Shown in pieces: positions 9,105 through 15,620 of a stretch of 15,620 nt of DNA. The translations under genes and the position numbers were made by a program. Positions within the stretch are counted from its first letter, which is position 1, and every line of letters begins with the position of its first letter. A model generated the notes under the pieces. That model made no database searches. It was not told the DNA's origin and saw only the letters and a program-made list of their open reading frames with translations. Source of the DNA: an uncultured Lachnospira sp. (GTDB lineage: Bacteria; Bacillota; Clostridia; Lachnospirales; Lachnospiraceae). Where the stretch lies: assembly GCA_934358235.1 (NCBI GenBank), contig CAKRKK010000037.1:1-15620 (forward strand), written 5' to 3'.

Positions 9105-9232
9105 ATGATACCAGGGTATTATGTGCCAGTAGCACATGTTTAGCACGGATCGGATTAGAGCGTAGACGTGGTAGTGCATAGCACGGAACAATCCGTAGGT
9201 ATCAAAGTCAGGGGCTTTTACCCCGACATCAT
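9105..9232 (+). repeat. Structured intergenic repeat, copy 1 (possible ncRNA or MITE-like element)
   Basis: This region of about 128 bases is bounded by ATGAT/ATCAT. An outer stem TGATACC (9106-9112) pairs with GGTATCA (9198-9204). Inside are ATGTGC-CAGTA-GCACAT (9121-9137) and ACGGA-ACAA-TCCGT (9183-9196). After the outer stem comes GTC-A-GGGG...CCCC-GAC (9207-9227). The last 60 or so bases (from about 9171) recur nearly unchanged, in reverse orientation, at 15519-15582. One difference turns a G-C pair into G-U in the ACGGA stem, preserving pairing on this strand. It fills the gap between the DUF4230 gene and the 93-residue gene. There is no coding potential. Confidence 0.75.
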
Positions 9233-13117: not shown

Positions 13118-13135
13118 TACTGTTTTCAGGCCTTC

Positions 13136-13188
13136 AATTATTAAATTATTAAATTATTAAATTATTAAATTATTAAATTATTAAATTA
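13136..13188. repeat. 8-nt tandem repeat (AATTATTA), 6.6 perfect copies
   Basis: Six identical AATTATTA units plus AATTA lie between the pgi stop and the terminator. They are perfect copies, so recent expansion by replication slippage is likely and copy number may vary between strains. Confidence 0.95.
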
Positions 13189-15518: not shown

Positions 15519-15620
15519 ATGATGTCGGGGTCAAAAGCCCCATACTTTGATACCTACGAATTGTTCCGTGCTACGCACTCCCACAATTCTCCCCAATATT
15601 CGCATATCGTGGGATTATCA
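15519..15620 (-). repeat. Structured intergenic repeat, copy 2 (cut by window edge)
   Basis: Read on the minus strand, this is the second copy of the element at 9105-9232. It has TGATA at the window edge (pairing TATCA at 15548-15552), TCCCAC with GTGGGA, ACGGA-ACAA-TTCGT (a G-U variant of the copy 1 stem), GGTATCA and then GGGG...CCCC and GACATCAT. The 3' 60 or so bases are nearly identical to copy 1; the interior is shorter and different. The 5' boundary may lie beyond 15620. Confidence 0.7.

What the first reader, a model, noticed from the sequence alone, without database searches (positions are those of the whole stretch)
9105..9232. Dispersed structured repeat with variable core and a stem-preserving change: possible undescribed ncRNA or miniature element
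Two copies (9105-9232 plus; 15519-15620 minus) share a nearly identical 3' segment of about 60 bases containing ACGGA-ACAA-TCCGT, GGTATCA, GGGG...CCCC and GACATCAT. Both enclose their interior in a TGATA...TATCA stem, but the interiors differ in sequence and length (99 against 73 bases) while each keeps hairpins. In the ACGGA stem, copy 2 has TTCGT instead of TCCGT. This is a G-U pair if the RNA is read in element orientation, and an A-C mismatch on the other strand, so it favours an RNA in that orientation. Copy 1 precedes a gene and copy 2 points into the end of one, so it is not simply a leader riboswitch.
Basis: partly seen in the sequence, partly recalled or inferred. Interest (0 to 1): 0.72.

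Follow-up and report, generated by a model that had tools for sequence, protein, structure and literature searches.

The report
Mobile repeats carrying Clostridiales-1 RNA
The two repeats belong to a known but uncharacterised RNA family (Clostridiales-1) that, in a large subtype found in gut Lachnospiraceae, turns out to be a high-copy jumping element whose RNA shape is kept while its letters change.

Summary
Both copies are real. Copy 2 (15521-15620, minus, cut by the window edge) is a clear member of Rfam RF01699, Clostridiales-1 RNA (56.8 bits, cut-off 48). Copy 1 (9106-9230, plus) is a degenerate relative (22.8 bits, below cut-off). Two details of the reading fail: copy 2's 'TGATA...TATCA' stem and 73-base interior are made by the window edge, and the ACGGA/TCCGT hairpin does not covary; copy 2's T is compensated in another helix. 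RF01699 is multicopy: at least 95 matches in one 3.5 Mb genome; 164 of 299 sampled family genomes match. One subtype has terminal inverted repeats, 6-7 bp target duplications (62 of 85 testable copies; shuffled mean 2.7), empty orthologous sites and an ends-only derivative, so it moves like a MITE. Rfam's model omits its 3' terminal hairpin. The RNA fold covaries strongly; in hand-picked low-copy genomes, copies have unrelated closing stems and often start at a stop codon or after a terminator. Best reading: a BOX-like, RNA-structured MITE family. Mobility rests on comparison; no transposase was found and the RNA's task is unknown. My paper searches found no description of the family as mobile.

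The parts
9106..9230 (+). Copy 1: degenerate/internally rearranged RF01699 element; both element ends kept (TGATACC... and ...CCCCGACATC), no clean target duplication visible
   Evidence: cmscan 22.8 bits, below cut-off 48; own core model 25.8 bits, E=1.4e-4; ends by comparison
9106..9112 (+). Copy 1 closing stem, 5' strand (TGATACC)
   Evidence: cmscan alignment
9198..9204 (+). Copy 1 closing stem, 3' strand (GGTATCA)
   Evidence: cmscan alignment
9211..9224 (+). Copy 1 3' terminal hairpin GGGG...CCCC, not in the Rfam model
   Evidence: sequence; corresponding hairpin in the 39 aligned elements
15521..15620 (-). Copy 2: RF01699 element running off the window at its 5' end; lies antisense, 30 bp after the radical SAM/SPASM gene
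   Evidence: cmscan 56.8 bits over 15548-15620, 5' truncated at model position 95; 97% identical over 102 nt to part of a full copy in G002
15558..15589 (-). Copy 2 helix P3 (GAATTG.../CAATTC), the covarying hairpin
15527..15541 (-). Copy 2 3' terminal hairpin (GGGG...CCCC)
   Evidence: sequence

Best explanation
Both repeats are copies of RF01699 (Clostridiales-1) or, for copy 1, a decayed relative. In Lachnospira and other Lachnospiraceae a large subtype is a non-autonomous DNA element of about 184-213 bp, MITE-like. It has ends 5'-TGATRCCAGGGTCAAAAG... and ...CTTTTGACCCCAACATC-3' (typical forms), lies almost always between genes, at A/T-rich sites, and duplicates 6-7 bp of target. It carries a structured RNA (closing stem, long hairpin 1 usually with a GCUUGC loop, hairpin 2 with a conserved internal loop, hairpin 3, plus a 3' terminal hairpin). 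Shown by comparison: membership, mobility, ends, target duplication, empty sites, structural conservation. Inferred: that an unlinked transposase acting on the inverted ends moves it; that the RNA domain is selected as RNA, read in element orientation within neighbouring transcripts, possibly because it makes insertions in untranslated regions tolerable or useful. Copy 1 is an old, decayed insertion; copy 2 is near-intact as far as it is visible.
For: RF01699 match over cut-off for copy 2. 95 matches in G292 (150 of 177 candidates scored) and 33 in G253; 164 of 299 family genomes match, 130 of 299 over cut-off, at most 9 candidates scored per genome; 17 of 22 genus genomes. Of 176 fetched copies, 85 had a TIR-type 5' end and a recognisable 3' end; 62 of 85 have an exact flanking repeat of 5 bp or more at the boundary (41 of 6 bp, 17 of 7 bp); re-paired flanks give a mean of 2.66 and a maximum of 8 in 200 shuffles. 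An ends-only derivative of 37 bp flanked by ATAATTA on both sides (L241). Empty site of the L153 insertion in the 8 relatives listed with matches on both sides. Window loci: copy 1 absent from the G002 spacer; copy 2 absent before the next gene in G001, G002, G003, G004. Covariation: 20 of 25 core pairs change on both sides, score 0.498 versus 0.204 shuffled and at most 0.137 slid. G-U 32 versus A-C 7 distinct changes in the 132 best of 170 aligned matches.
Against: No transposase-bearing element with these ends was found. Copy 1 shows no target duplication and scores below Rfam's cut-off. The G-U excess may be helped by choosing copies by model score: in all 170 matches helix P3 alone gives 10 G-U versus 12 A-C. 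23 of 85 boundaries lack a repeat of 5 bp or more, and 91 of 176 fetched copies were not testable. Copies with target repeats show no significant orientation preference (20 versus 12, p=0.22). No transcript data.
Confidence: 0.82

Rival explanations
1. A plain MITE: the folding is only the DNA palindrome structure needed for transposition, with no RNA role.
For: Two ends alone occur flanked by a direct repeat (L241); insertion orientation not significantly biased; no transcript data.
Against: Internal helices P2/P3 covary although they are not at the ends; G-U over A-C among high-scoring copies; loop GCTTGC in 144 versus GCAAGC in 38 of 176 copies in element orientation; RF01699 members over cut-off without these inverted ends.
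Confidence: 0.25
2. A stand-alone small RNA gene family (as Rfam types it: sRNA), copies arising by duplication rather than transposition.
For: Rfam type 'Gene; sRNA'; single strong copies in several genomes.
Against: Precise target duplications, empty sites, an ends-only derivative and 95 matches in one genome.
Confidence: 0.1
3. A cis-acting mRNA element at gene 3' ends and between cistrons (stability, processing or coupling to translation end), which became mobile in some lineages; compatible with mobility.
For: In 20 low-copy genomes, 16 of 22 copies with a callable left gene are sense to it, and 11 of these 16 have its stop codon within 25 nt of the element start (10 of the 11 genes Pfam-checked, e.g. 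groEL, pgk, EF-G, PFK); 7 of 23 follow a T-run.
Against: Among the 152 other, mostly inverted-end copies the left gene is sense 71, antisense 71; no significant bias; the 20 genomes were hand-picked for low copy number; the gene caller was a simple ORF scan; no function measured.
Confidence: 0.3

Closest known systems
Rfam RF01699 Clostridiales-1 RNA (Weinberg et al. 2010, PMC2864571; table row and passages seen)
   Same: Same sequence/structure family; copy 2 over the gathering score; other Lachnospiraceae copies up to 153.4 bits.
   Different: Rfam lists it as an sRNA gene; its model stops at the closing stem, omitting the 3' terminal hairpin and the element boundary; the passages I saw say nothing on mobility (supplement not read).
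BOX elements of Streptococcus pneumoniae (PMC3049150; passages seen)
   Same: Repeats with TIRs and target duplications, predicted structure of the transcribed form, modular forms, copies at the extreme 3' end of genes supplying the stop codon, one copy forming a composite RNA with T boxes.
   Different: No sequence relation was tested; BOX is boxA-boxB-boxC, here one core plus hairpins; cross-genome covariation and unrelated closing stems are seen here.
IStrons (PMC4227781; start of the abstract in a search listing only)
   Same: A DNA transposon carrying a functional RNA that makes insertions harmless.
   Different: No splicing or group I intron is claimed here; no transposase gene was found with the RF01699 elements.

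Membership tests
RF01699 Clostridiales-1 RNA | Score at or above the curated gathering score (48 bits) | tested here: met
   Copy 2: 56.8 bits although truncated. Copy 1: 22.8 bits, NOT met; described only as a degenerate relative because its 3' segment is 90% identical over 72 nt to a full copy (L079).
RF01699 Clostridiales-1 RNA | Closing stem plus hairpins 1-3 | tested here: inconclusive
   Copy 2: hairpin 3 and the 3' half of hairpin 2 present, rest beyond the window. Copy 1: closing stem present, 5' strand of hairpin 3 lost.
MITE | Short, no transposase gene | tested here: met
   39 aligned elements of 184-213 bp.
MITE | Terminal inverted repeats | tested here: met
   TGATRCCAGGGTCAAAAG / TGATGTTGGGGTCAAAAG and variants: 123 exact pattern matches in 4 genomes versus 0 for the reversed control.
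MITE | Target site duplications | tested here: met
   62 of 85 testable copies, control mean 2.66. Not seen at window copy 1; untestable at copy 2.
MITE | Shares ends with an autonomous transposon | tested here: inconclusive
   None found in the stretches and genomes looked at; the search was limited and its last listing was cut.
BOX elements | boxA-boxB-boxC modular sequence | not tested
   No BOX sequence was compared.
Leader riboswitch | Consistent position upstream of related genes in sense | tested here: not met
   Both orientations occur; copy 2 lies antisense to the gene before it. Downstream genes are co-oriented more often than not (81 versus 42), but relatedness of those genes was not examined.

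The most novel reading that the evidence does not exclude
RF01699 is an RNA-first family whose ends are set by the RNA closing stem, not by a DNA sequence: among 29 copies chosen for differing context, 28 have distinct 5' stem strands and 27 still form at least 6 of 7 pairs, and in low-copy genomes copies lie mostly sense and flush with a stop codon or just after a terminator. It would be an RNA acting where translation or transcription ends, which acquired mobile ends in some lineages.
Probability: 0.25. Interest if true: 0.75.

Novelty: new variant of a known kind. Interest (0 to 1): 0.52.

Why it matters
An Rfam 'sRNA' common in Lachnospiraceae is, at least in one large subtype, a transposable element; annotating each copy as an sRNA gene is then misleading. 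Its strongly conserved RNA fold makes an open question testable: why some bacterial MITEs (BOX-like) keep an RNA structure, and whether RNA carried by a mobile element softens or uses its insertion at gene ends.

Tried and rejected
Autonomous element: a pair of ends 4.1 kb apart in G292 (L229) enclosed ORFs that do not look like a transposase by eye, and its right end is that of a separate element remnant; a 3-mismatch end search in two genomes gave 77-110 matches per strand against reversed controls of 22-45, with the listing cut. Orientation bias: in the larger inverted-end set (135 copies, 3 inside a long ORF) tandem-gene context gives 41 sense versus 23 antisense and the downstream gene is co-oriented 81 versus 42; among the 58 copies with target repeats in the later script it is 20 versus 12, p=0.22, so I do not claim it. 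Phage or plasmid carriage: matches in 9 and 20 records (two queries), unannotated faecal 'Bacteriophage sp.' records that may be bacterial DNA; one Butyrivibrio plasmid with 3 places; no plasmid match for another query. An exact 40-base pattern in viral contigs: 0. Empty sites among fetched loci: none marked in the part of the output shown (cut). Copy 1 locus in G001: flanking matches lie 4.2 kb apart, so not a clean test; other genomes were not tested for it.

Full report
What the window holds. Copy 1 lies at 9106-9230 (+), between a DUF4230 gene and a 93-aa ORF without a Pfam match; copy 2 lies at 15521-15620 (-), 30 bp after a radical SAM/SPASM gene, and runs off the window. The window is from Lachnospira or close kin: the SPASM protein's best matches are 88% (Lachnospira sp. 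UBA5912) and 81% (Lactobacillus rogosae ATCC 27753) identical. No whole genome is held for the window.

Identity. cmscan against Rfam 15 finds RF01699 (Clostridiales-1) at copy 2 with 56.8 bits (cut-off 48; E 2e-10), truncated 5' at model position 95, and at copy 1 with 22.8 bits (E 0.27 for the whole window; 0.004 in a 231-base search), below the cut-off. So the TGATAA at the window edge is not the outer stem of copy 2: it aligns inside hairpin 2. Copy 1 keeps the closing stem, a 3' segment 90% identical over 72 nt to a full copy in G002 (L079) and the 3' terminal hairpin, but its middle fits the model poorly and it has lost the 5' strand of hairpin 3.

Copy number. In 22 genus genomes 17 match at E<=0.01 and 13 exceed the cut-off; counts run up to 24. 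In 299 family genomes 164 match, 130 over the cut-off, with at most 9 candidates scored per genome. Two genomes held as one large contig have 95 (150 of 177 candidates scored) and 33 matches, some in tandem. The 14 control genomes gave none.

Mobility. I oriented 176 copies. 85 had a TGAT-type 5' end and a recognisable 3' end; the other 91 were dropped from the count. 62 of 85 are flanked by an exact repeat of at least 5 bp touching both ends, mostly 6 (41) or 7 (17) bp, A/T-rich; re-pairing flanks between copies gives 2.66 on average and at most 8 in 200 trials. The element therefore extends beyond the Rfam model to ...CTTTTGACCCCAACATC and its two ends are imperfect inverted repeats. One derivative is just the two ends: 37 bp in L241 with ATAATTA on both sides; other shortened forms with both ends measure 95 (L233), 66 (L237) and 71 bp (L234), whose flanks I did not test. 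The L153 insertion in G292 is absent from the orthologous site of the 8 relatives listed with matches on both sides (G320, G321, G322, G323, G324, G027, G028, G327): 24-52 bp lie between the two matches there against 195-223 in the query; the listing was cut, so further relatives may exist. For the window, copy 1 is absent from the matching 178-bp spacer of G002, the one genome where this could be tested cleanly; copy 2 is absent from the space between the SPASM gene and the next gene (murG by my reading of its start) in G001, G002, G003 and G004, the four read.

RNA structure. In 28 aligned cores 92.2% of cells pair, 20 of 25 pairs change on both sides, and the covariation score is 0.498 against 0.204 after shuffling and at most 0.137 when slid; one measure, further pair types, is not above shuffles (133 of 500). 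In the 132 best of 170 model-aligned matches, distinct G-U changes outnumber A-C ones 32 to 7 (P2 21:6, P3 7:1, P3 tip 4:0; the two innermost P2 pairs left out); in all 170 the figures are P2 37:13, P3 10:12, P3 tip 6:0, so degenerate copies blur the asymmetry and choosing by score may sharpen it. GCTTGC occurs in 144 of 176 copies in element orientation, GCAAGC in 38.

Wider family. Some matches over the cut-off lack the inverted ends: L068 (105.6 bits), L071 (83.7), L074 (73.8). I then took 20 of the 130 over-cut-off genomes, chosen because they had few, strong hits, and got 25 matches; I read 23, leaving out one already held and one below the cut-off. With 6 earlier copies, picked as one per type, 29 closing stems show 28 different 5' strands; 27 of 29 pair at 6 or 7 of 7 positions, against a shuffled mean of 1.72 (maximum 6). 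Rfam's alignment favours paired ends, so this control is generous to the claim. Of the 23, 16 of 22 copies with a callable left gene lie sense to it, 11 of those 16 have its stop codon within 25 nt of the element start, and 7 of 23 follow a T-run. Ten of the 11 upstream proteins were checked and each has Pfam matches: uridine kinase family, GroEL, altronate dehydratase, YicC, EF-G, HD domain, PFK, D-Ala ligase, thiolase, PGK; the eleventh (L300) is a short ORF across a terminator and may be spurious. By contrast, among the other 152 copies the left gene is sense 71 and antisense 71, the right gene 98 and 44. In L074 a T-box leader (RF00230, 115.5 bits) and in L068 an ldcC/SpF59 RNA (RF02440, 52.9 bits) lie upstream of the element. 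In 58 copies with target repeats the sense preference is not significant (20:12, p=0.22; within 20 nt of a stop 11 of 28 sense versus 5 of 20 convergent, p=0.36).

Interpretation. Membership of RF01699 (copy 2) and mobility of the inverted-end subtype are well supported. The mobilising enzyme is unknown. That the RNA is selected as RNA is likely, from covariation, strand asymmetry and conservation across elements with different ends, but no transcript was examined. The closest known kind is the BOX element of pneumococcus (PMC3049150, passages seen): TIRs, target duplications, predicted folding of the transcribed form, copies that supply stop codons, a copy combined with T boxes. I searched the paper library with the terms and saw no report of RF01699 as a mobile element in the listings; the supplement of PMC2864571, which may comment on the motif, was not read. 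In a 2024 review of prokaryotic MITEs (PMC10969869) the terms 'Clostridi', 'Lachnospir' and 'Rfam' do not occur in the main text.

Noticed in passing
L074 1176-1652; L073 around 1501-1657; L068 1235-1659: RF01699-type elements sit after the terminators of regulatory leaders (T-box before what reads like trpE; what reads like a T-box before tyrS; ldcC/SpF59 RNA before what reads like ldcC). Only the L074 T-box and L068 RF02440 were confirmed by Rfam.
   Followed up: partly
L285 (G137:C6), downstream of the element: A single RF01699 copy lies just upstream of what reads like the RNase P RNA gene (by eye).
   Followed up: no
L119 (G303:C1 near 294042): After the element, the hairpin-3 unit alone appears repeated in tandem with a spacer.
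   Followed up: no
G292:C1 copies of 204-206 nt, e.g. L181-L188: A sub-family with about 50 extra nt inside the RNA body, 10 copies in one genome's listing.
   Followed up: no
G292:C1:2403040-2403674 and 541241-541584: Tandem arrays of elements with periods of about 150-159 bp and of 191 bp (the latter sharing the target repeat).
   Followed up: no
L083, L085, L087, L073 downstream: A second GCGCGAG...CGATGAGA-type structured repeat with the same GCTTGC loop, after terminators; weak RF01699 hits for the first three, perhaps a sister family.
   Followed up: no
G003 copies L076, L086, L225-L228: RF01699-like core (below the cut-off) inside a longer conserved repeat with shared flanks (left ...TTCCGATTTAACGAG, right CGTAATGTAGT...).
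   Followed up: no
window 13133-13188: Short tandem array of 8-bp TTAAATTA units downstream of the phosphoglucose isomerase gene.
   Followed up: no
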